DNA from: Kordia sp. TARA_039_SRF
GTDB taxonomy: Bacteria > Bacteroidota > Bacteroidia > Flavobacteriales > Flavobacteriaceae
Assembly (NCBI GenBank): GCA_006383075.2
Contig: SMNH02000012.1
Span: 1-64,000, forward strand
Reading direction: 5' to 3'
Length of the DNA stretch: 64,000 bases
Positions 52,991-62,608 of this stretch are shown here, piece after piece; the stretch's first letter is position 1; every line of letters starts with the position of its first letter. The notes beneath the pieces were generated by a model. It saw only the letters and a list, made by a program, of their open reading frames with translations, was not told where the DNA came from and did no database searches. A program made the position numbers and the translations under genes.

Positions 52991-53554
52991 TTAACGACTT
53001 TTCAATTCGAGTTCCAATTCAGTTATTTTTTTCCGAATCAGGCGTTTTCCTTTTTCGTATGGTGAATTTATCTCTGCTTTTGTCAGTTCTTCTATCAAAA
53101 ACAGTAACTCTTTTGACGTAAGTTCTTGTGGCGTTTTTTGATAAATTCCAGCATCAATCTCAGAAGGTGTTAGCTTTTCATTTTCAAGTTCACGAATGCG
53201 CGCTTTCGGAATGCTTACATCTACTTCAACGAGTTGATGCGTGGTTTTTGGGAGTGCTGTTTTACCAATTAGCTGTAAATAATCTGCCAAAATTCGTTTC
53301 TCAACACCAATAGAGCCACTTCCAAAAGGATGTCGGTCAGTCATGTCTTTTTTCGGATTAGAAATCCAATACTCATCACGGGTTTCTATATCCATGTAAT
53401 TTCCAGCAATTCCATTACCGCCGATACTTTTAAAAGCTTTATTATTGAAGTAAATGGTTTTCCCACTTTTAGAAAACGAAACCAATCCTATCCACGCTGG
53501 ACCGTTGTCGTTATATCCACTTTTTAGTTCAATATATTTAATTTCTGGTGTCAT
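52991..53554 (-). CDS. Conserved hypothetical protein
   Basis: 187 residues, soluble. The first ~110 residues are beta-rich with IELKSGYNDNGPAWIGLVSF and NYMDIETRDEYWISNPKKD. The C-terminal ~75 residues form helices rich in Glu/Lys (IPKARIRELENEKLTPSEID, YEKGKRLIRKKITELELEL). I do not recognise a named family. It converges on the response regulator gene with 3 bp between the stops. Confidence 0.65.
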   Translation of the reverse strand: MTPEIKYIELKSGYNDNGPAWIGLVSFSKSGKTIYFNNKAFKSIGGNGIAGNYMDIETRDEYWISNPKKDMTDRHPFGSGSIGVEKRILADYLQLIGKTALPKTTHQLVEVDVSIPKARIRELENEKLTPSEIDAGIYQKTPQELTSKELLFLIEELTKAEINSPYEKGKRLIRKKITELELELKSR

Positions 53555-53689
53555 AATTACTTCGTTTGGTAACTAAAAGTAATTATTTTACCGAAATTAG
53601 TTGGTTTATGAGTTTATAATCTAAAGAAAAACTCAAAATTCAACATCCAACATTTAAAATTAAAGAGCCAACACCAAACACCTAGAAAA

Positions 53690-54103
53690 CTAATGCGGTA
53701 ACTTATTCTTTAACAAGCCATACACAAATGTTCCAAGCAACGCTGAAGCAATGACAACCAGAATAGGAGCAAATCCTGCGCCTACAAGTGTAAACATTGG
53801 TCCTGGGCAAGCACCAGCCAACGCCCAACCCAATCCGAATAAAATTCCGCCGAATAAATAGCGTTTTACTTTTTTCTCTTTTGGATAAAATTTAATAGGT
53901 TCTCCATAAAACGAACGCACGTTAAATCGCTTGATAAGAAAGGTGCCAATCACACCGGTAATTACAGCCACACCAATAATTCCGTACATGTGAAACGCTT
54001 CAAATTTGAACATTTCATAAATGCGAAACCAAGAAGCCGCTTCCGATTTAAACATGGTAATTCCGAAGACAATACCGATAAGTAGATATATTATAGTTCT
54101 CAT
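53690..54103 (-). CDS. YeeE/YedE-type (DUF6691) membrane protein
   Basis: 137 residues with four hydrophobic helices. GIVFGITMFKSEAASWFRIYEM and FGGILFGLGWALAGACPGPMF are the half-transporter signature, with the key Cys in GACPGPM. Together with the gene just upstream it forms a split YeeE/YedE thiosulfate/sulfur transporter; Cys residues in the pore pass the substrate on. The stop/start gap to its partner is 4 bp. Confidence 0.88.
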   Translation of the reverse strand: MRTIIYLLIGIVFGITMFKSEAASWFRIYEMFKFEAFHMYGIIGVAVITGVIGTFLIKRFNVRSFYGEPIKFYPKEKKVKRYLFGGILFGLGWALAGACPGPMFTLVGAGFAPILVVIASALLGTFVYGLLKNKLPH

Positions 54104-54107
54104 AATT

Positions 54108-54665
54108 TTAAAAAAGTAAAGGGAAAATAAAATGAATCATGATGAGTCCGCCAATAAAGAAGCCAATAACAGCAATTAATGATGGTATTTGCAAGTCGCT
54201 CAATCCAGAAATGGCGTGTCCGGAAGTACAGCCGCCAGCGTAGCGCGCACCTAAACCAACTAAAAATCCACCAATAATTAAAAGAGAAAGACTTTTGATG
54301 TCTGTAAACACAGAGGTATCAAACAATTCGTTTGGCAAATAGGCTTTTCCAGCACTTTCAAATCCTAGCGCTTGCAAATCGGCAACAGTATTCGGATTGA
54401 TGGCTACAGCTTCTTCAACCGTTAAAAACTCATGCGCAATAAAACCTCCAATAATAGCGCCTAATACAACAACCAAATTCCAGCGTTGTGCTTTCCAATC
54501 AAAACGAAAAAAATCTGCCTTATTGCCTGCACCACAAATGGTACACATGGTTCGCAGGTTTCCAGACATTCCAAAGTTTTTTCCGACCATAATCAGCAAA
54601 AACATAATTAAAGCAATCATAAACCCAGAAACGTACCAAGGCCATGGTTCATATATCCAATTCAT
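54108..54665 (-). CDS. YeeE/YedE-type thiosulfate transporter half
   Basis: 185 residues, five hydrophobic helices. LVGLGARYAGGCTSGHAISG carries the conserved Cys of the YeeE/YedE family, and CTICGAGNKADFFRFDWK is the family's cytoplasmic loop. It should import thiosulfate or related sulfane sulfur with the downstream half. A GTAAC-N4-GTTAC operator lies 48 bp before the start. Confidence 0.9.
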   Translation of the reverse strand: MNWIYEPWPWYVSGFMIALIMFLLIMVGKNFGMSGNLRTMCTICGAGNKADFFRFDWKAQRWNLVVVLGAIIGGFIAHEFLTVEEAVAINPNTVADLQALGFESAGKAYLPNELFDTSVFTDIKSLSLLIIGGFLVGLGARYAGGCTSGHAISGLSDLQIPSLIAVIGFFIGGLIMIHFIFPLLF

Positions 54666-54712
54666 AACGTATTATTTTTTAACAAAAGAAAGAAAATCAT
54701 TTGACGTTCTAA

Positions 54713-54726
54713 GTAACTTTAGTTAC
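54713..54726. promoter_or_regulatory. GTAAC-N4-GTTAC operator, site 1 (YeeE operon)
   Basis: GTAAC TTTA GTTAC. It lies between the YeeE pair (start 54665) and the divergent methyltransferase gene (54795), so it may serve both. Confidence 0.75.
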
Positions 54727-54794
54727 AATATTTAAAAATAGGGAAACTTTTTGAAGCATATAGGTTATCACAAACTTATCGCGTATTTTTAAGC

Positions 54795-55397
54795 ATGAAA
54801 CAGCAGCTTTTAACAGAAATCATAGGAAATACCGATATTTATTTAATCGATCAAATTTTAAAAGGTCGCTATCAGCAAAATGATTTTGTGTTAGATGCTG
54901 GTTGCGGAAGCGGTCGAAATTTATCGTATTTTGATACAAGTGCTATTTCTTTTTGTGCGATTGATACGAACGAAGCATACATACAACAGCTTCAAGAAAA
55001 ATATCCACAACATTCCGAGCGTATACAAGTAGCTTCCTTAGAAAATATTCCGTTTTCAGTAGCTACTTTTGACCATATTATTTGCAACGCAGTGTTGCAT
55101 TTTGCGCAAAGTGAAACACATTTTAAAACGATGTTTGCAGAATTGGTTCGTGTGTTGAAAAAAGGCGGAAGTTTGTTTGTTAGAATGACTTCCAATATTG
55201 GCATTGAAGGAAAACCAACTCCTTTAAAAAACGAAGTTTATTTTTTACCAGACGCTACAGAACGATTTTTGTTAACACGCGAGTTGTTAAGTGAATTGCT
55301 CAACACTCACCAACTTTCCTTGCTAGAACCTGTAAAAAGTACCAATGTGCAGGATTTGCGAAGCATGACAACCTTAGTGTTGTCAAAACAAGCTTAG
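54795..55397 (+). CDS. SAM-dependent methyltransferase (TehB-like size)
   Basis: 200 residues. Motif I VLDAGCGSGRNLSYFD is at ~34-49, then FCAIDTNEAYI (acid loop), FDHIICNAVLHFAQSE (motif IV) and VRVLKKGGSLFVRMTS. A simple class I methyltransferase fold similar in size to TehB. It is divergent from the YeeE operon, shares its intergenic operator and overlaps the rhodanese gene tail to tail by 4 bp; this suggests a role in sulfur or metalloid detoxification, which is inference. Confidence 0.82.
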   Translation: MKQQLLTEIIGNTDIYLIDQILKGRYQQNDFVLDAGCGSGRNLSYFDTSAISFCAIDTNEAYIQQLQEKYPQHSERIQVASLENIPFSVATFDHIICNAVLHFAQSETHFKTMFAELVRVLKKGGSLFVRMTSNIGIEGKPTPLKNEVYFLPDATERFLLTRELLSELLNTHQLSLLEPVKSTNVQDLRSMTTLVLSKQA

Positions 55398-55738
55398 CTC
55401 CACGCTTTGTAACCGCCTTTTAAATCGTATATTTTTTTAAAACCTATTTCGAGTAATTTTTTTGCAGCACGCTGACTTCGGTTTCCTGAGCGACAATATA
55501 AATACATTGGCTTTTCGCGATTGAAACCTGCAAAATTTTCATTAAAATTTGCTTGGTCAAAAAAGTCAATATTGATAGCGTTTTCTATGTGTCCGGCGTT
55601 GTATTCTTCAATGGTACGTACATCTACCAATTGCACATCATTCGCAGCGATTGCTTTTTTATATGCATTAAGATCAAGAATTTCGATAGCATCTGTAGAC
55701 GCACTTTTTTTCCTGAATAAAGAATTTATAAAAGACAT
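55394..55738 (-). CDS. Single-domain rhodanese
   Basis: 114 residues. The rhodanese fold is complete, with VQLVDVRTIEEYNAGHIENA and the active loop YLYCRSGNRSQRAA (Cys near 82), then GFKKIYDLKGGYKAW. The enzyme moves sulfane sulfur between thiols. A GTAAC-N4-GTTAC site lies 59 bp upstream, placing it in the sulfur regulon. Confidence 0.92.
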   Translation of the reverse strand: MSFINSLFRKKSASTDAIEILDLNAYKKAIAANDVQLVDVRTIEEYNAGHIENAINIDFFDQANFNENFAGFNREKPMYLYCRSGNRSQRAAKKLLEIGFKKIYDLKGGYKAWS

Positions 55739-55796
55739 AAAATTCGGGTTTAAGATTTTCTCGCTGTAAAAATAATAGAGTGCGTATGTATGGGCA

Positions 55797-55810
55797 GTAA
55801 CTAAGGTTAC
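55797..55810. promoter_or_regulatory. GTAAC-N4-GTTAC operator, site 2 (rhodanese)
   Basis: GTAAC TAAG GTTAC, 59 bp before the rhodanese start at 55738. Confidence 0.75.
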
Positions 55811-55889
55811 ACAGGAAGTTTTTCTTGAAGCAATAAGTAACTTTTAATAATCACTGTAAAATAAAAAATACATTACTTCAAAACAAAAT

Positions 55890-55960
55890 ATCGAGTACAG
55901 TTGATCGGTTTTTTATTACACCAAACTTTACAAACACTTTTATGTTCAACTGCACTCGAT
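55890..55960. repeat. Inverted repeat after the MBL-rhodanese gene
   Basis: ATCGAGTACAGTTGA (55890-55904) and TCAACTGCACTCGAT (55946-55960) pair over 14 of 15 bases. The TCGAGTGCAGTTGA core is a common REP-type unit in flavobacteria. It lies just beyond the stop at 55969 and may end that transcript. Confidence 0.6.
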
Positions 55961-55968
55961 TGTATATT

Positions 55969-57375
55969 TTATAAGGTAGAAGGGCACACAAAATCGGACA
56001 CAGGAATATCCGTTTCTTTGATGGCTTTAAATCCGCCTTCTACATTGATGAGGTTGTGAATGCCTCTACTTTTTAATATGGAAGCTGCAATAACGCTTCT
56101 GTAGCCACCTGCACAATGCACATAGAATGTTTCTCCTTGTGGAAACTCAGCTAAGTGCGAATTGATATAGTCTAACGGTGTATTTTTTGCTTCTAACACA
56201 TGCTCTGATGCAAATTCACTTTCGCGGCGAACGTCAAAAACAGGAAGTGTTTCATCGTAGGCTTCTTGAAAGGTTTTTGTGGAAATTGAACTCATAGTAT
56301 CGTATTCCTTTGAAGCTTTTTTCCATGCATCAAATCCGCCTTTTAAATATCCTAAAGTATGGTCAAAACCAACTCTTGATAAACGAGTTACAGCTTCTTC
56401 CTCACGTCCTTCTGGTGCAACTAATAAAATTGGTTGTTGAATGTCTGCAATCAACGCGCCAACCCACGGAGCAAAACTTCCGTCCAAGCCAATAAAGATA
56501 GAACGCGGAATGTGTCCTTTTACAAATTCATCTTGATGGCGTACATCCAATACTATGGCATTTGTTTCATTAGCAACTACTTCAAATTCTGTTGGAAGTA
56601 ATGGTGTAGTTCCTCTTTTTAATACTTCTGAAACATCGTCGTATCCTTCTTTATTGAGTTTTACGTTTTCTGGGAAATAATTTGGCGGCGGCAACAAACC
56701 ATCAGTTACTTCTTCAATAAATTCTGCTCGCGTCATATCTTCGCGCAAAGCGTAATTCATTTGCTTCTGATTGCCCAGCGTATCCATCGTTTCTTTCATC
56801 ATATTCTTTCCGCAAGCAGAACCCGCGCCATGCGCAGGATATACCATAATGTCATCAGACAACGGCATGATTTTTTCGCGTAAGCTATCAAATAAATGAC
56901 TCGCCAAGTCTTCCACTGTAATAGAACCTGATTTTTGGGCTAAGTCTGGTCGTCCAACATCTCCTAAGAAAAGTGTATCTCCACTAAACAACGCATGGTC
57001 TTTTCCGTTTTCGTCACGTAGAAGATAGCAGGTACTTTCCATTGTATGTCCTGGCGTATGCAGCGCAATAATGGTAATGTTTCCTAGCTTAAATTCTTGA
57101 TAATCTTCTGCAATCACTGCGTCAAACGTCGGATTTGCGTTTGGTCCGTAAATGATAGGCGCACCCGTTTTTTTGGCTAGCGTTACGTGTCCGCTGACAA
57201 AATCGGCATGGAAATGCGTTTCAAAAATATATTTAATAGTAGCGTTCTGTTGCTTTGCTTTGTCAATGTACGGTTGTACTTCGCGTAAAGGATCAATAAT
57301 AGCAACTTCGCCATTACTTTCTATGTAGTAAGCACCTTGTGAAAGGCAGCCTGTATATATTTGTTCTATATTCAT
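55969..57375 (-). CDS. Persulfide dioxygenase-rhodanese fusion (CstB-like)
   Basis: 468 residues. An N-terminal metallo-beta-lactamase domain shows ETHFHADFVSGH (HxHxDH iron site), HTPGHTMES and FSGDTLFLGDVGRPDL, typical of ETHE1-type persulfide dioxygenases. A pseudo-rhodanese follows (~265-350; no active Cys, ILLVAPEGREEEA), then an active rhodanese at the C-terminus (FYVHCAGGYRSVIA). This MBL-RHD-rhodanese order equals CstB, which turns persulfides into thiosulfate. The MBL step uses Fe(II) and oxygen. A GTAAC-N4-GTTAC site is 55 bp upstream. Confidence 0.93.
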   Translation of the reverse strand: MNIEQIYTGCLSQGAYYIESNGEVAIIDPLREVQPYIDKAKQQNATIKYIFETHFHADFVSGHVTLAKKTGAPIIYGPNANPTFDAVIAEDYQEFKLGNITIIALHTPGHTMESTCYLLRDENGKDHALFSGDTLFLGDVGRPDLAQKSGSITVEDLASHLFDSLREKIMPLSDDIMVYPAHGAGSACGKNMMKETMDTLGNQKQMNYALREDMTRAEFIEEVTDGLLPPPNYFPENVKLNKEGYDDVSEVLKRGTTPLLPTEFEVVANETNAIVLDVRHQDEFVKGHIPRSIFIGLDGSFAPWVGALIADIQQPILLVAPEGREEEAVTRLSRVGFDHTLGYLKGGFDAWKKASKEYDTMSSISTKTFQEAYDETLPVFDVRRESEFASEHVLEAKNTPLDYINSHLAEFPQGETFYVHCAGGYRSVIAASILKSRGIHNLINVEGGFKAIKETDIPVSDFVCPSTL

Positions 57376-57429
57376 AAAGAGTATTTTTTATTTTTTTTGT
57401 AAAAATACGTTGTTAAGAGTTAATTTACA

Positions 57430-57443
57430 GTAACTTGTGTTAC
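57430..57443. promoter_or_regulatory. GTAAC-N4-GTTAC operator, site 3 (MBL-rhodanese)
   Basis: GTAAC TTGT GTTAC, 55 bp before the start at 57375. Confidence 0.75.
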
Positions 57444-57504
57444 AGAATTGTGTTTCTAAATTGTACACAATAGTATTTTTTTGTGATATATGTCTTCGTG
57501 TAAT

Positions 57505-58302
57505 TTACTGTTTTACGAAAAATTCCATGTAAAAGATAAAAATTGCCATCACAAAGATGAAATAGCCAAATCCTTTTTTGAGTTTTTTTCCGTCAATAAA
57601 ATTACCTAAATAGCTTCCAATAAAGATTCCAGCTAGTGATATTGCGGTAAATATAGCTAAAAATTGCCAATCGATTTCCATGGTTAATGCATCGCCTAAA
57701 AAGAAGCCTAACAGCGATTTAAACGCAATGATTACTAAGGAAGTTCCGACAGCAACTTTCATTTCTACATTTGCCAATAATACCAACGCAGGAATAATTA
57801 AAAATCCGCCGCCAGCACCAATCATCCCCGTAATGGCACCTACTACCAAACCTTCTGCCAAAATCAGCGGATAGTTATAGGATACTTGTCCGCTATTGTC
57901 TTTTTCTTTTCGTTCTTTGAGCATTGAGAACGCTGCGGGAAACATAAGCATTGCAAATAAACCAAACATGCCCATTCTACGCGTAAATTCGAAATCGCCA
58001 ACCGTAAATAAAGTATCTGGAAGTGCAGGAACTACATAATACCGAATAAGCGTTACTCCGATAATGGCAGGAATTCCAAAAACAATCGCAGTGCGCCAAT
58101 CTACATAGCCTTTAAAGTGTTGTTTTAATCCACCAACCAATGCGCTGGTTCCTACAATAAATAATGAATAAGCTGTGGCTACTTTTTCATTTACAGAGAA
58201 AAGATATGCCAACACGGGTACAGCTAAAATAGAGCCGCCGCCGCCAATAAGTCCGAGAGAAATTCCAATCACCAAGGCACTGATATAGCCAAGTATTTCC
58301 AT
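57505..58302 (-). CDS. TauE/SafE-family sulfite/organosulfur exporter
   Basis: 265 residues with seven or eight hydrophobic helices. GLIGGGGSILAVPVLAYLF and GMIGAGGGFLIIPALVLLA are the two family repeats. Exports sulfite or related anions, which are products of persulfide dioxygenases. A GTAAC-N4-GTTAC site lies 55 bp upstream of the start, within the gap to the regulator gene. Confidence 0.9.
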   Translation of the reverse strand: MEILGYISALVIGISLGLIGGGGSILAVPVLAYLFSVNEKVATAYSLFIVGTSALVGGLKQHFKGYVDWRTAIVFGIPAIIGVTLIRYYVVPALPDTLFTVGDFEFTRRMGMFGLFAMLMFPAAFSMLKERKEKDNSGQVSYNYPLILAEGLVVGAITGMIGAGGGFLIIPALVLLANVEMKVAVGTSLVIIAFKSLLGFFLGDALTMEIDWQFLAIFTAISLAGIFIGSYLGNFIDGKKLKKGFGYFIFVMAIFIFYMEFFVKQ

Positions 58303-58356
58303 AGTTTTTTAAGGTATTTGTTGATACAAAGAACCGTAATGTGTTTCTGTCTCGCA

Positions 58357-58370
58357 GTAACAAAAGTTAC
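58357..58370. promoter_or_regulatory. GTAAC-N4-GTTAC operator, site 4 (TauE)
   Basis: GTAAC AAAA GTTAC, 55 bp before the TauE start at 58302 and directly after the regulator gene, which ends at 58375. Confidence 0.75.
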
Positions 58371-58374
58371 ATAT

Positions 58375-59010
58375 TTACTCTAAATCGATGATTTTGATAT
58401 GATTTCGATGCAATTCAATCGCGCCCATTTGCTCTAGTTTTTTTAAGAGTCGTGATATGACAACTCTGGAGCTGTGCAAGTCATAAGCGATTTCTTGATG
58501 TGTATTTTGAATAGTGTTTGAGTTGTTGATGCGTACTTTTTCTTTGAGATAATTCACCAAACGCTGATCCATTTTTTCAAAAGCGACACTGTCTAAAATA
58601 TGCAATACTTCATTGAGTCGGTTGTGATAACTTTGGAATACAAAATCACGCCAAGATTTGTATTTGGTTGTCCATTCTTCCATTTTCTGGACAGGTATCA
58701 TGATGAGTATCGTATCTTGTTCGGCAACCGCTTTTATTTCACTTTTGGTATGTCCCATGCAACAATTCATCGTCATGGAACAGGTTTCGCCACTTTCCAA
58801 ATAATAGAGTAGGAGTTCGTCGCCTTCTTTATCTTCTCGCATTACTTTGATAGCGCCAGAAATCAAGAGTGGAACGCCGCGGATATAATCGCCAATCGCC
58901 ATCATGGTAAAGCCAGCAGGAACTTCTTTAAAAGTGCCTACTTGCGCAATTTCATTGATGAGTTCTTTTTCAAAAAGATGTCCGTAATTGTCTTTAAGTT
59001 CTTGAATCAT
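58375..59010 (-). CDS. Crp/Fnr-family regulator of the sulfur genes
   Basis: 211 residues: a cyclic-nucleotide-binding-type beta barrel (GFTMMAIGDYIRGVPLLISGAI, ELLLYYLESGETCSM) and a C-terminal winged helix (YDLHSSRVVISRLLKKLEQMG is the recognition helix). The barrel carries CSMTMNCCMGH (Cys77, Cys83, Cys84). This Cys-x5-CysCys group sits where cNMP ligands would bind, so the protein may sense persulfide, redox or NO. It is encoded amid genes that each carry the GTAAC-N4-GTTAC palindrome, including its own, so autoregulation is likely. Confidence 0.9.
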   Translation of the reverse strand: MIQELKDNYGHLFEKELINEIAQVGTFKEVPAGFTMMAIGDYIRGVPLLISGAIKVMREDKEGDELLLYYLESGETCSMTMNCCMGHTKSEIKAVAEQDTILIMIPVQKMEEWTTKYKSWRDFVFQSYHNRLNEVLHILDSVAFEKMDQRLVNYLKEKVRINNSNTIQNTHQEIAYDLHSSRVVISRLLKKLEQMGAIELHRNHIKIIDLE

Positions 59011-59097
59011 GGAGTGTAATTTGGATGTGATTTAGCGTTTTAAAAAGTACTGAAATTTTTTCACATCCAAAATTAGGGCTTTTAAAATTGTTATGGT

Positions 59098-59111
59098 GTA
59101 ACAAAGGTTAC
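59098..59111. promoter_or_regulatory. GTAAC-N4-GTTAC operator, site 5 (Crp/Fnr gene)
   Basis: GTAAC AAAG GTTAC, 88 bp before the regulator start at 59010 and 71 bp before the divergent gene at 59182. Confidence 0.75.
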
Positions 59112-59181
59112 ACTATTGACTTGTAAGAAATATCTTTTTTTTGAAAAAAATTTGTATTTTTAGAAGACAAAATATAGTATT

Positions 59182-59730
59182 ATGAGTACGCTTGAAATTC
59201 CCAAAGAATGGAAGAAGATATCTGTTAAATCGGCTGAGTTTATTTTAAACGAAACAAAAGATTATGTAGATTATACATTGAAAGAAGCTGAAAAAATAAC
59301 AAATAGGACGTATGCGCTACTATTGTTGCTAATCACCATTTTATCCGCATTGATTGGTTTTACATATACTACAATACTTGAGGGCAATTATAATGGAATT
59401 ATTTATGTCAACTTTTTTATTATAATGACTATTGCTGCATTTATTATGTATTTGTCAAGCGTCATTCGTTCAAGAGGTATGAAAGTTAAAGGAAGAAGAC
59501 CTGAAAAATTAATGAAAACGACACACCTGATTAATCCTGCTCTTAAAGACGAAGAAAATTATTTGGCTTTTATCTTGCGAGAAATCATTAACTGTGAGGA
59601 TAAAATAGCCTATAATTTAAGCCAAAACAAACTCAGAAGAAACAAGCTAAATATGACTTTAAAAGCAATTGCTGTATTATTTCCTTTATATATTGTAATT
59701 GCATTTTTTGCTATTACTCAGGTTCATTAA
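59182..59730 (+). CDS. Membrane protein of unknown function
   Basis: 182 residues. Two adjacent hydrophobic helices at ~43-65 (YALLLLLITILSALIGFTYT) and ~72-95 (IYVNFFIIMTIAAFIMYLSS), and a third at the C-terminus (AVLFPLYIVIAFFAIT). A cytoplasmic part with DEENYLAFILREIINCEDKI lies between. This topology resembles small SLATT-type or Pycsar-like membrane effectors, but I cannot assign it. It shares its upstream region, with the GTAAC site, with the Crp/Fnr gene. Confidence 0.65.
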   Translation: MSTLEIPKEWKKISVKSAEFILNETKDYVDYTLKEAEKITNRTYALLLLLITILSALIGFTYTTILEGNYNGIIYVNFFIIMTIAAFIMYLSSVIRSRGMKVKGRRPEKLMKTTHLINPALKDEENYLAFILREIINCEDKIAYNLSQNKLRRNKLNMTLKAIAVLFPLYIVIAFFAITQVH

Positions 59731-59827
59731 AATGTTCAGATGTATCTGGTGACGGATCTGATTTGTCTACGTCAAAAATGTCTACATCATTATCATCATC
59801 TTCTGGATCAAAATTCGATAGATTCAT
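59714..59827 (-). CDS. Small acidic protein
   Basis: 37 residues, ATG at 59827 and TAA at 59714-59716: MNLSNFDPEDDDNDVDIFDV followed by DKSDPSPDTSEHFNEPE. Very acidic (many Asp/Glu), with no hydrophobic segment. It overlaps the end of the convergent membrane protein gene by 17 bp. The spaced D/E pattern is unlikely to come from antisense of non-coding DNA, but evidence is modest. Confidence 0.4.
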   Translation of the reverse strand: MNLSNFDPEDDDNDVDIFDVDKSDPSPDTSEHFNEPE

Positions 59828-60177: not shown

Positions 60178-60804
60178 TTACAAGAAGGTCACTTTTCCAT
60201 TGCTAATATCATACATGGCGCCTACGATTTTGATGTCTTCATCACGTTCCATGTCTGCCAATATTGGACTCTGCGTTCGAATGTTTTCAATAGTCATTTC
60301 CACATTTTTAACCGCTACTTCGTTGACAAAATCTAAATTTTTTGAGTTTCGAAGATTTTCGTCTGCTGGTTTTTTAACAGCATCTACAGCAGGCTCAATT
60401 TTTTTGATGAGTGTGGTTAAATTACCAAGTCGCGCATGGTCACAAGCTCCTTTTACCGCACCACAACTAGTATGTCCTAATACGACAACAATTTTAGTTC
60501 CTGCAAGCTTGCAAGCAAATTCCATACTTCCTAAAATGTCTTCATTTACAAAATTTCCAGCAATACGAATGCTAAATATATCGCCCAACCCTTGATCAAA
60601 AACAAGTTCAGCAGATACTCTAGAATCAATACAGCTCAAAATGGTAGCAAACGGAAATTGTCCATTTCGGGTATCGTTAACTTGTTGCAAAAGATTTCTA
60701 TTTGCTTTTAAGTTTTGCTGAAATCGCCGGTTTCCCTCTTTTAAAAATTGTAGCGATTTTTCAGGAGTCATGGAAGCTTGTGTTTCTTTCGTATGTGCTT
60801 TCAT
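60178..60804 (-). CDS. Beta-class carbonic anhydrase
   Basis: 208 residues. The zinc ligands are visible: Cys in LSCIDSRV (with the Asp-Arg dyad) and HTSCGAVKGACDH (His and Cys). FSIRIAGNFVNEDILGSMEF and IVVVLGHTSCG are family core strands. Interconverts CO2 and bicarbonate. It is immediately downstream of a SulP transporter, a pairing typical of bicarbonate uptake. Confidence 0.93.
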   Translation of the reverse strand: MKAHTKETQASMTPEKSLQFLKEGNRRFQQNLKANRNLLQQVNDTRNGQFPFATILSCIDSRVSAELVFDQGLGDIFSIRIAGNFVNEDILGSMEFACKLAGTKIVVVLGHTSCGAVKGACDHARLGNLTTLIKKIEPAVDAVKKPADENLRNSKNLDFVNEVAVKNVEMTIENIRTQSPILADMERDEDIKIVGAMYDISNGKVTFL

Positions 60805-60859
60805 ATAGTATTTTTTAGTGTTATAGAAGTTTTGATGTGTGTGTAATTAGTGTTGAAAT

Positions 60860-62449
60860 TTACGCTGTTTTTTCTAACTTAAAAAATTTGATAAAACTCG
60901 GTGGATTTTCCACAACGCCGCGTTCAGAAATCAATTTAATATCAATATTTCTGTTGCGTGCTTTTTCCGAGAAATCTTCTAAAATTTCAATAATGTCATT
61001 GTCTAAAAATCGTGTTTTACGAACATCGAGTTCCAAAAAAGTATCTTCAGGAATACTGTCTAATTCCTTTAAAATTGCTCCTTTGTTAAAGAAAGTAACT
61101 TCTTCTGCAAATGTCATTTTGATTTTGCCTTTTCCTTCATTTTTATCTTCAATGTGTAAAAAGTGTGAGTTTTGGAAACTTTTGTATAAAATTACCACGA
61201 TTCCCACGGCAAGTCCGAGTCCAATTCCCCAAAGTAAATCAATAAAAACAATTCCTAAAACAGTTACAATAAAAGGAACAAACTGTTTCCAACCAGCTTC
61301 AAACATTTGCTTGAATAGTTTTGGTTTTGCCAATTTATATCCTACAATCAGTAGTATTGCTGCCAATACAGAAAGCGGAATCATATTTAACAAATTCGGA
61401 ATTAAAATCACCGAAATTAATAATAAGAAACCGTGAATAATTGCAGACATTTTAGTACGTCCGCCCGATTGAATATTGGCAGAACTTCGTACGATTACTT
61501 GCGTAATTGGCAATCCGCCAATCAATCCAGAAACCACGTTTCCTGTTCCTTGCGCGAGTAATTCTCTATTCGTTGGTGTCACACGTTTGAGTGGATCTAA
61601 TTTGTCCGTTGCTTCCACACACAACAACGTTTCTAAACTCGCTACTAACGCCATTGTAAAGGCTGCAAGAAGTACTTCAGGATTCTTAATAGCAGCAAAA
61701 TTTGGAAATGTAAATTGTCCTAAAAACGAATCGAAATCGTTAGGAACAGGTACTTTTACCATGTGTTCTGCAGAAATGCCAAGTGTAGCGTGTCCTTGTG
61801 TCAACACAAAATAGACAATTCCTAAAGCGACTACAACTAAAGGTCCTTGAATCAACTGAAAAACCTTTCCTTTTTTAGATAAAACCGTATTCCATAAAAT
61901 TAAAATTGCCAATCCAATCACAGCGATAAGCGTAGCGCCCAAACTGATATGATTGATAGAATTTAAAATTTCAGAAAAAGTATTTTCCCCATCTACTTGA
62001 AAAAAAGCAAAATCTCCTTGCGGGTCTTTGTCATATCCGAAAAAATGTGGAATTTCTTTTAAAATGATAATAATACCAATTCCTGTAAGCATTCCTTTAA
62101 TGACGGATGAAGGGAAAAAATAGCCAATAATTCCAAATTTTAAAACGCCAAAAACAATTTGAATGACACCTGCCAAAACAACCGCAACCAAAAAATCTTT
62201 GAACCCGAGTGAGGCAATCGCTGCAATTACAATCGCTGTTAAACCAGCAGCAGGACCACTTACGCCAATTTGAGAACCACTCATGATTCCGACAACAATT
62301 CCTCCTACAATACCGGCAATTAAACCAGCAAAAGGTTCAGCTCCACTCGCAACGGCAATACCTAAACAGAGTGGAAGTGCAACAAAGAATACAATAATAC
62401 TTGCGGGAAAATCCGCTTTGAGGTGTTTAAATGGATTAGAATTAGACAT
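60860..62449 (-). CDS. SulP-family anion transporter, probably bicarbonate
   Basis: 529 residues from ATG 62449 (MSNSNPFKHLKADFPASIIV), which fits the family start; the frame upstream is not protein-like. About ten to twelve helices with FFVALPLCLGIAVASGAEP, SGPAAGLTAIVIAAIASLGF and LVASLETLLCVEATDKLDPL are SulP hallmarks. A C-terminal STAS domain follows (FLELDVRKTRFLDNDIIEIL). SulP proteins carry sulfate or bicarbonate; the carbonic anhydrase next door favours bicarbonate. The gap to that gene is 55 bp. Confidence 0.92.
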   Translation of the reverse strand: MSNSNPFKHLKADFPASIIVFFVALPLCLGIAVASGAEPFAGLIAGIVGGIVVGIMSGSQIGVSGPAAGLTAIVIAAIASLGFKDFLVAVVLAGVIQIVFGVLKFGIIGYFFPSSVIKGMLTGIGIIIILKEIPHFFGYDKDPQGDFAFFQVDGENTFSEILNSINHISLGATLIAVIGLAILILWNTVLSKKGKVFQLIQGPLVVVALGIVYFVLTQGHATLGISAEHMVKVPVPNDFDSFLGQFTFPNFAAIKNPEVLLAAFTMALVASLETLLCVEATDKLDPLKRVTPTNRELLAQGTGNVVSGLIGGLPITQVIVRSSANIQSGGRTKMSAIIHGFLLLISVILIPNLLNMIPLSVLAAILLIVGYKLAKPKLFKQMFEAGWKQFVPFIVTVLGIVFIDLLWGIGLGLAVGIVVILYKSFQNSHFLHIEDKNEGKGKIKMTFAEEVTFFNKGAILKELDSIPEDTFLELDVRKTRFLDNDIIEILEDFSEKARNRNIDIKLISERGVVENPPSFIKFFKLEKTA

Positions 62450-62608
62450 GATAGTAAATGTTTTGTGAATTGAAAATGATGCGTACAAAACGCATATTTT
62501 TCGTTTGTTGTTAGCGTTATTTTTTTTTGAGAATTGGAACGATTCACTTAAAAGTATGAGAATCAAAGAGAAACGTTCAAGTTTATCTATTTATGGGATA
62601 TAAATATA

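What the first reader, a model, noticed from the sequence alone, without database searches (positions are those of the whole stretch)
54713..59111. Five identical-architecture operators (GTAAC-N4-GTTAC) define a persulfide regulon
Seen: perfect GTAAC-N4-GTTAC palindromes at 54713, 55797, 57430, 58357 and 59098, 48-88 bp before the YeeE pair, rhodanese, MBL-rhodanese, TauE and the Crp/Fnr gene. Each of the five units has one. Known: palindromic sites with a 4-bp spacer suit Crp/Fnr dimers. Inference: the Crp/Fnr protein encoded at 58375 controls the set and itself. The divergent genes at 54795 and 59182 may also respond.
Basis: partly seen in the sequence, partly recalled or inferred. Interest (0 to 1): 0.75.

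Follow-up and report, generated by a model that had tools for sequence, protein, structure and literature searches.

The report
Crp-type activator regulon for sulfide oxidation
In a bacterium that is most likely a Kordia, five identical DNA switches sit at the exact distance from gene starts where Crp-type proteins turn genes on, and the same switch recurs at sulfide-handling genes elsewhere in this genome and in many relatives, which suggests that the neighbouring Crp-like protein is the activator of sulfide oxidation in this group.

Summary
In detail: five exact GTAAC-N4-GTTAC palindromes (0.02 expected in the window). The genome holds ten: these five, three in a second locus (SQR, a metal-binding protein with cytochrome c, cydAB), and two inside ORFs.

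Each window palindrome lies exactly 22 bp before a TAnnTTTG-like -7 box that faces its gene. This puts its centre at -41.5, the class II activator position; half-site (GTA-N8-TAC) and position are those of cyanobacterial NtcA. The divergent sides lack a good box at that distance, so the two divergent genes are probably not targets.

In 80 named relatives, 74 loci keep palindrome plus -7 geometry; no other 5-base arm comes near. Targets recur: MBL-rhodanese (probable persulfide dioxygenase), rhodanese, TauE, YeeE, SQR, cytochrome bd, peroxiredoxin, DUF983; in other genera also sulfite oxidase and a TolC-RND pump. Within one genus, species with a close regulator carry the sites (6 of 6 against 1 of 19).

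Best reading: the encoded Crp/Fnr protein is a class II activator of a sulfide/persulfide-oxidation regulon, and activates itself in this genus. Binding and activation are inferred. Persulfide as signal, perhaps through Cys77, is plausible but unproven. Ten searches of the open library listed no description of it.

The parts
54713..54726 (-). operator 1 (GTAACTAAAGTTAC), YeeE pair
   Evidence: exact palindrome; -7 box 22 bp downstream on the minus strand
54683..54690 (-). predicted -7 box TTCTTTTG of YeeE1 promoter
   Evidence: 5 of 6 fixed positions of TAnnTTTG at offset 22
55797..55810 (-). operator 2 (GTAACCTTAGTTAC), rhodanese
55767..55774 (-). predicted -7 box TATTTTTA of rhodanese promoter
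   Evidence: 5 of 6 at offset 22
57430..57443 (-). operator 3 (GTAACACAAGTTAC), MBL-rhodanese
57400..57407 (-). predicted -7 box TATTTTTA of MBL-rhodanese promoter
   Evidence: 5 of 6 at offset 22
58357..58370 (-). operator 4 (GTAACTTTTGTTAC), TauE
58327..58334 (-). predicted -7 box GTTCTTTG of TauE promoter (weakest)
   Evidence: 4 of 6 at offset 22, tied with two other offsets
59098..59111 (-). operator 5 (GTAACCTTTGTTAC), autoregulation of the Crp/Fnr gene
   Evidence: kept with geometry in 9 of 10 congeners but in 1 of 24 regulator genes outside the genus
59068..59075 (-). predicted -7 box TAATTTTG of regulator promoter
   Evidence: 6 of 6 at offset 22
58375..59010 (-). Crp/Fnr regulator, 211 aa; only Cys at 77, 83, 84; recognition helix SSRVVISRLLKKLE
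   Evidence: PF00027, PF13545, PF00325 over cut-off; Cys positions; AlphaFold2 mean pLDDT 89.7 and Crp/NtcA fold matches
57505..58302 (-). TauE/SafE sulfite-exporter-family protein
   Evidence: PF01925 4.3e-40
55969..57375 (-). metallo-beta-lactamase + two rhodanese domains, probable persulfide dioxygenase
   Evidence: PF00753, PF00581 in two stretches; enzyme activity inferred from architecture
55394..55738 (-). single-domain rhodanese
   Evidence: PF00581
54108..54665 (-). YeeE/TsuA-like sulfur transport half 1
   Evidence: PF04143; TsuA model NF052577 far below cut-off, 43 of 400 bits
53690..54103 (-). YeeE/DUF6691 sulfur transport half 2
   Evidence: PF20398, PF04143
54795..55397 (+). SAM methyltransferase inside the cluster, divergent from operator 1; probably not a target
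   Evidence: PF08241; 2 of 6 at offset 22 on its side
59182..59730 (+). divergent hypothetical protein; probably not a target
   Evidence: no Pfam family; 3 of 6 at offset 22

Best explanation
The Crp/Fnr protein at 58375-59010 is a dimeric class II transcription activator. It binds GTAAC-N4-GTTAC centred at -41.5 and recruits RNA polymerase (sigma-A, -7 box TAnnTTTG) at five promoters of the window (YeeE pair, rhodanese, MBL-rhodanese probable persulfide dioxygenase, TauE, itself). It probably also acts at seven promoters elsewhere in the genome: a second MBL-rhodanese, a heavy-metal-associated (HMA) protein followed by a cytochrome c/Tll0287 gene, SQR, peroxiredoxin, cydAB, a small ORF followed by a TonB copper-receptor-like gene, and DUF983. 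Output: sulfide to persulfide (SQR), persulfide to sulfite (dioxygenase, rhodanese), export of sulfite or thiosulfate, and a switch to cytochrome bd. The inducer is probably a persulfide or polysulfide that modifies Cys77, with or without the Cys83-Cys84 pair. Shown by sequence: sites, geometry, conservation, co-occurrence. Inferred: binding, activation, signal.
For: Five of five window sites have the -7 box at exactly offset 22, summed score 25 of 30; the next best offset scores 16; the other side at 22 scores 11 of 30. In F. psychrophilum the sigma-A box spans -12 to -5 (PMC9723704, passages), so the centre is -41.5; canonical NtcA sites GTAN8TAC are centred at about -41.5 (PMC3898017, abstract). 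Own-genome composite scan: of 7 exact hits, 6 face YeeE1, rhodanese, MBL-rhodanese, the regulator, SQR and cydA, and 1 is the reverse face of the cydA site. 80 named relatives: 74 loci with site plus geometry; 168 palindromes against at most 7 for any of the 59 other arm permutations and 47 for the next of all 1024 arms; 157 of 334 orientations with a strong box at offset 22 against 10 at the next offset. 149 of 183 correctly facing sites precede a gene like one of the reference set, against 8 of 150 other orientations. Order sample: 101 composite sites against 9 for the reversed control; all 44 positive genomes (own included) carry a regulator homologue. One genus: 6 of 6 with a close regulator against 1 of 19 (Fisher 4e-5). 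Sites precede SQR also where SQR lies far from the regulator (L147-L149).
Against: No binding, transcript or sulfide data. Start sites are predicted, not mapped; the TauE box is weak (4 of 6). Of 11 one-mismatch composite hits in the own genome, 6 face candidate targets, 1 is the face of the regulator site towards the 59182 gene, and 4 do not face a candidate target (contexts). Regulator genes outside the genus mostly lack the site (1 of 24; 13 facing sites in 80 named loci), so autoregulation is not general. Five of 34 genomes with a V183+CC regulator had no exact composite site, and 4 of 24 without that combination had one. Cys77 is also kept in homologues without sites, and G038 and G219 lack the CC pair yet have sites, so the sensing step is weak. 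Most window targets are linked to the regulator, so linkage adds to their association.
Confidence: 0.82

Rival explanations
1. Same protein and sites, but it represses: it sits over the -33 region and leaves when persulfidated, as BigR or CstR do.
For: The palindrome (-48 to -35) touches the -33 region, and the known BigR system of an overlapping gene set is a persulfide-sensing repressor (PMC7315123, passages).
Against: Fixed 22-bp phasing to the -7 box across many genomes is what an activator needs and a blocker does not; it equals the NtcA activator position.
Confidence: 0.1
2. The protein is the activator, but the signal is not persulfide: e.g. redox state, NO, copper or oxygen; sulfur genes are only part of a wider respiratory or metal response.
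For: Candidate targets include cytochrome bd, an HMA-domain protein, a TonB copper-receptor-like gene (best model TIGR01778, 262 of 472 bits, below cut-off), peroxiredoxin, DUF983, and TolC-type genes in relatives (17 of 30 unassigned ORFs downstream of composite sites). Cys77 is kept also in homologues without sites.
Against: The most frequent targets handle sulfane sulfur or its products; bd oxidase induction fits sulfide exposure, and copper effects were seen with sulfide in A. baumannii (PMC7315123, passages).
Confidence: 0.3
3. Another Crp/Fnr protein of the genome reads the palindromes.
For: Three more HTH_Crp_2 proteins exist.
Against: Two of them have another helix (TATESVIRIL, IATETLIRTL); the third, partly masked, has TSRPTLNIL. 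Sites follow the presence of the close regulator within one genus (6 of 6 against 1 of 19), and the cluster encodes the regulator.
Confidence: 0.05
4. The five sites are copies of one promoter spread by local duplication, not a kept regulatory code.
For: Five alike architectures in 4.4 kb.
Against: The spacer bases and 22-bp gaps differ between units; the same code occurs at unlinked SQR, cydA and DUF983 genes and in other families.
Confidence: 0.02

Closest known systems
NtcA of cyanobacteria (Crp family, 2-oxoglutarate)
   Same: GTA-N8-TAC site centred at about -41.5 at activated promoters (PMC3898017, abstract); recognition helix with R-V....R, here SRVVISRLL against TRVTVTRLL; same fold
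   Different: Far below the NtcA model cut-off (44 of 245 bits); no nitrogen genes among the targets named here; different phylum and promoter; ligand unknown
FisR regulon (sigma-54 activator; Acinetobacter, Cupriavidus)
   Same: An activator of SQR, persulfide dioxygenase and TauE genes; cytochrome bd also raised by sulfide in A. baumannii (PMC7315123, passages)
   Different: Regulator of another family (AAA+/sigma-54); here Crp/Fnr and a sigma-A-type -7 box
BigR/SqrR/PigS (ArsR repressors)
   Same: BigR controls yeeE-yedE-pdo2, the same transport and dioxygenase modules (PMC7315123, passages)
   Different: ArsR-family repressor; the window protein is Crp/Fnr with activator geometry
CstR of Staphylococcus (CsoR family; recalled, not from a call)
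   Same: Operon with rhodanese, dioxygenase, TauE, SQR (recalled)
   Different: All-alpha CsoR-type repressor (recalled)
E. coli CRP / FNR
   Same: Fold, HTH, class II position (recalled)
   Different: The CRP residue E of SRETVGR is V183 here; only C77, C83, C84, no N-terminal Fe-S cysteines; CRP model score 45 of 266 bits
PDB 3dv8, Crp/Fnr protein of Eubacterium rectale
   Same: Best sequence and fold match (1e-17; TM 0.81), Cys at the C77 and C83 positions
   Different: 24% identity over the fold alignment; the records give no function

Membership tests
Crp/Fnr superfamily | cNMP-binding-like beta-roll plus Crp-type winged helix | tested here: met
   PF00027, PF13545, PF00325 over cut-off; model matches CRP, NtcA, FNR structures
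Crp/Fnr class II activator | palindromic site centred at -41.5 | tested here: met
   offset 22 to the -7 box in 5 of 5 window sites and in relatives; start sites predicted, not mapped
Crp/Fnr class II activator | loss of transcription without the protein | not testable with these tools
   needs a mutant
NtcA | NtcA equivalog model (TIGR03697) | tested here: not met
   44.4 bits, cut-off 244.95
NtcA | GTAN8TAC site at about -41.5 | tested here: met
cAMP-CRP | CRP equivalog model (NF008732) | tested here: not met
   44.8 bits, cut-off 266
FNR (Fe-S) | N-terminal cysteine cluster plus a central Cys (recalled) | tested here: not met
   only Cys77, 83, 84
Persulfide-sensing regulators (BigR/SqrR, CstR, FisR) | ArsR, CsoR or AAA+/sigma-54 domains | tested here: not met
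   only Crp/Fnr families in the Pfam scan
Sulfide-oxidation regulon (functional kind) | shared operator at SQR, persulfide dioxygenase, rhodanese and sulfite/thiosulfate transport genes | tested here: met
Sulfide-oxidation regulon (functional kind) | induction by sulfide or persulfide | not testable with these tools
   no expression data

The most novel reading that the evidence does not exclude
A widespread family in Bacteroidia of Crp/Fnr proteins that sense persulfide directly through Cys77 and Cys83-Cys84. To my knowledge it would be a further architecture for dedicated persulfide sensing besides ArsR/CsoR repressors and FisR, activating at NtcA-like sites. It would couple sulfide oxidation to a bd-oxidase switch, to copper handling under sulfide (HMA protein before cytochrome c, TonB copper-receptor-like operon beside cydAB) and, in many genera, to a TolC-HlyD-RND pump.
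Probability: 0.42. Interest if true: 0.8.

Novelty: new variant of a known kind. Interest (0 to 1): 0.63.

Why it matters
Bacteroidota are among the phyla whose sqr and pdo transcripts rise when sulfide is added to marine sediment; that paper's main text does not contain the word 'regulator' (PMC12345210, passages). This work gives a candidate regulator, its operator, the promoter geometry and a target list, so sulfide control in this group becomes testable with one mutant and one EMSA. It also gives a sharp operator code (palindrome, 22 bp, TAnnTTTG) with which genes of unknown role (DUF983, DUF2202, FA-hydroxylase, HMA protein, RND pump) can be tied to sulfide stress.

Tried and rejected
Considered and rejected. 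Chance. Local promoter duplication. Control of the two divergent genes: (a looser box misses by one base towards 59182). The two C3 palindromes as targets: they lie inside ORFs. An Rfam RNA element: none at gathering scores in the window. E. coli-type sigma-70 promoters and terminators in 53500-59800: not above the shuffles. A TolC orthologue under this operator in the own genome: only matches of 21 and 23% identity, whose loci hold no exact composite site.

Against a simple V183 code: G222 and G037 carry E183 and still have composite sites. That table holds 58 of the 152 regulator-positive genomes, those whose regulator I had fetched; 33 of the 44 composite-positive genomes are in it. Eleven positives with more distant homologues (G111, G143, G299, G114, G182, G211, G265, G266, G285, G295, G305) are not, so its p-values are too favourable. 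The 6-of-6 against 1-of-19 comparison uses all 25 members of that genus; the cut (E below 1e-60 against 1e-49 to 1e-53) was set after seeing the values, but no value lies between; G143 is the one exception.

In one search (78 of the 101 composite sites; the rest were in loci already held or not fetched) 9 sites have no downstream ORF; some look like start-codon miscalls or back faces of divergent sites (read, not resolved one by one). Downstream names are best BLAST hits to my reference set, some at 33-41% identity. In the phylum sample, 11 sites lay outside the order; reading with Pfam, 7 precede TauE (2), YeeE, thioredoxin, TolC-type, DUF983-regulator, or stand at the end of a distant regulator homologue before a small ORF and a thioredoxin gene; 4 look like chance; the control had 3 outside the order. 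One row (G078) is a wrongly picked ORF and is ignored.

Literature: ten searches of the open library; no listed paper describes this regulator or operator, as far as titles and abstract starts show. Subscription papers and RegPrecise were not searchable. Papers: passages of PMC9723704, PMC7315123, PMC12345210, PMC9774590; abstract and outline of PMC3898017; the rest search listings only.
Full report
1. The observation. The five palindromes are real, exact and at the stated places (0.02 expected). No other inverted repeat of 5-base arms is shared by more than two of the five 150-bp upstream regions. In the whole genome the exact palindrome occurs ten times. Five are these. Three lie in an 8.6-kb stretch of contig C2. 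Two lie inside ORFs in C3.

2. A second locus in the same genome. The exact C2 sites lie 50 bp before an 88-aa HMA-domain protein that is followed by a cytochrome c/Tll0287 gene, 55 bp before an SQR-like gene (best model type III SQR NF049943, 236 of 525 bits, below cut-off) and 49 bp before cydAB. One-mismatch sites there precede a second MBL-rhodanese and a 1-Cys peroxiredoxin. A third faces away from cydA with a 6-of-6 box towards a small ORF without Pfam family and a TonB receptor, whose best NCBIfam model is the copper receptor TIGR01778, below cut-off. A further one-mismatch site with the box at offset 22 precedes a DUF983 gene in C3. With the window that makes twelve candidate promoters.

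3. Geometry. On the side of the target gene each window palindrome is followed, after exactly 22 bp, by a TAnnTTTG-like octamer (5, 5, 5, 4 and 6 of 6 fixed positions); on the other side the scores are 2, 1, 3, 2 and 3. In F. psychrophilum the sigma-A box TAnnTTTG spans -12 to -5 (PMC9723704, passages). The palindrome therefore spans -48 to -35 with centre -41.5. This is the class II position, and the site is a GTAN8TAC site, as in NtcA-activated promoters (PMC3898017, abstract). The regulator's recognition helix SRVVISRLL aligns with NtcA TRVTVTRLL and with CRP SRETVGRIL; the CRP glutamate is valine in both NtcA and here.

4. Conservation in the genus. All ten congeners searched have the regulator (86-98% identity) and loci with TauE, MBL-rhodanese, MTase and YeeE1; rhodanese is seen in nine. 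Site and facing -7 box together: TauE 10 of 10, YeeE1 10 of 10, MBL-rhodanese 10 of 11 (one gene counted as two ORFs), regulator 9 of 10, rhodanese 8 of 9, SQR 2 of 2, cydA 1 of 4; YeeE2 (0 of 9), carbonic anhydrase (0 of 10), SulP (0 of 10) and cydB (0 of 4) have none. One congener contig has the length of a named Kordia jejudonensis contig (143,894 bases), so the genus is most likely Kordia. In other genera, with geometry: TauE 5 of 10, MBL-rhodanese 7 of 12, YeeE1 4 of 10, SQR 3 of 4, regulator 1 of 24; a sulfate-permease-family gene near the regulator has the site in 5 of 5, with geometry in 4 (two of the five checked with Pfam). SQR keeps the site where it is unlinked to the regulator (L147, L148, L149).

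5. A second collection. In the 80 best named loci (partly the same genomes) the palindrome occurs 168 times, against at most 7 for any of the 59 other arm permutations and 47 for the next of all 1024 arms. 74 of 80 loci have it with the -7 geometry, and it ranks first of all arms with 186 facing sites against 17 for the next. 157 of 334 orientations have a strong box at offset 22, against 10 at the next best offset. All 80 regulators keep C77, C83, C84 and V183; these are the closest relatives by construction. Of 183 facing sites, 149 precede a gene like one of the reference set (TauE 30, MBL-rhodanese 38, rhodanese 16, regulator 13, YeeE1 11, DUF983 11, sulfate-permease-like 7, peroxiredoxin 7, cytochrome c 6, SQR 4, cydA 3, TolC 2, sulfite oxidase 1), 21 another ORF, 13 none; of 150 other orientations 8 do, MTase and the 59182-like gene once each among them. 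The loci are centred on the regulator, so genes near it are over-represented. HMA proteins and FA-hydroxylases are among the unassigned ORFs (three checked).

6. Order and phylum. The composite pattern (palindrome, 22 bp, TAnnTTT) has 101 exact hits in 44 of 296 genomes, own included, against 9 for the control. All 44 carry a regulator homologue at E of 1e-20 or better, which 152 of 296 do. Genome size confounds that comparison. In one genus of 25 sampled species, those with a close regulator have sites (6 of 6) and those with only a distant homologue do not (1 of 19; Fisher 4e-5). Of 78 composite sites fetched in 60 loci, downstream genes by best hit were MBL or rhodanese 24, cytochrome c 5, SQR 3, TauE 2, sulfate permease 2, cydA 2, peroxiredoxin 1; 30 were unassigned ORFs and 9 had none. 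Of the 30, 17 are TolC-type (OEP), 2 molybdopterin oxidoreductases (one scanned: best NCBIfam model SorA sulfite dehydrogenase, 226 of 600 bits, below cut-off), and the rest include thioredoxins, DUF983, DUF2202, FA-hydroxylase and a methyltransferase. TolC-HlyD-RND operons stand next to the regulator in L127 and L247. Outside the order, 11 sites were found in the phylum sample against 3 for the control; 7 precede genes of this kind, one of them in a DUF983-regulator operon.

7. The protein. Pfam finds only Crp/Fnr domains. AlphaFold2 gives a confident Crp fold (mean pLDDT 89.7) with 3dv8, CRP, Vfr and NtcA among its neighbours. Its only cysteines are 77, 83 and 84, in the stretch that lies at the effector pocket in CRP (that placement is recalled). 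C77 is invariant in 45 aligned regulators, as are R182, V184, S186 and R187. C77 is also kept in homologues without sites, so it is not a marker of sulfur sensing by itself. In A. baumannii a Crp-like protein is among persulfidated regulators, with unknown effect (PMC7315123, passages).

8. Mechanism. Shown by sequence: operators, promoter geometry, target set, co-occurrence with the regulator. Inferred: binding by this protein, activation, autoregulation. Weakest: the signal. The set fits one physiological story: SQR feeds electrons to quinone, persulfide dioxygenase and rhodanese yield sulfite, sulfite is exported or oxidised, cytochrome bd takes over from sulfide-sensitive oxidases, and copper handling is adjusted because sulfide changes copper availability; the last clause is my inference from the HMA and TonB genes.

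9. Verdict. A real, strongly conserved regulon of a Crp/Fnr protein with class II geometry. It works like NtcA in site and position but is not NtcA; it serves the function of FisR, BigR or CstR but with another protein family. The ten literature searches listed no description of it, and I call it a new variant of a known kind.

Noticed in passing
own genome C2:5000-24000 (L011): Second sulfide locus: MBL-rhodanese, HMA protein, cytochrome c/Tll0287, DUF2490, SQR-like, PEMT-like, peroxiredoxin, TonB copper-receptor-like gene and cydAB, with three exact and three one-mismatch operators, two of them facing apart between TonB and cydA.
   Followed up: yes
L011 3840-4106; L146 5778-6044; L386 9285-9554; L390, L391: Small HMA-domain (metal-chaperone-like) proteins directly follow operators in this genome and other genera; Pfam-confirmed in L011, L146 and L386, by eye in L390 and L391.
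   Followed up: partly
L127 2478-8175; L247 607-6443: TolC-HlyD-RND efflux operon next to the regulator, with the operator; TolC-type genes follow 17 of 78 composite sites of the order. Substrate unknown; no orthologue with a site in the own genome.
   Followed up: partly
own genome C3:402488 (L163 1581-1973); L277; L321 1549-1938: DUF983 small membrane-type protein is a repeated target (11 of 183 facing sites), just before the regulator gene in another order; function unknown.
   Followed up: partly
L297-L308 (one genus, unnamed): A sister group of the regulator with E183 and no CC pair; the 12 genomes have no composite GTAAC site, so it probably reads another operator, not determined.
   Followed up: no
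window 54795-55397: A SAM methyltransferase is kept inside the cluster in all ten congeners (a short ORF in L118) although the operator mostly faces away from it.
   Followed up: partly
L349 8949-9824; L410 11623-12504; L361, L406: FA-hydroxylase genes follow facing operators in several genera; Pfam-confirmed in L349 and L410, by eye in L361 and L406.
   Followed up: partly
window 60178-62566: Carbonic anhydrase and SulP transporter pair is a constant neighbour of the cluster in ten congeners but has no operator (0 of 10 each).
   Followed up: partly
L116 10517-11923: In one congener the MBL-rhodanese gene is split into two ORFs.
   Followed up: no
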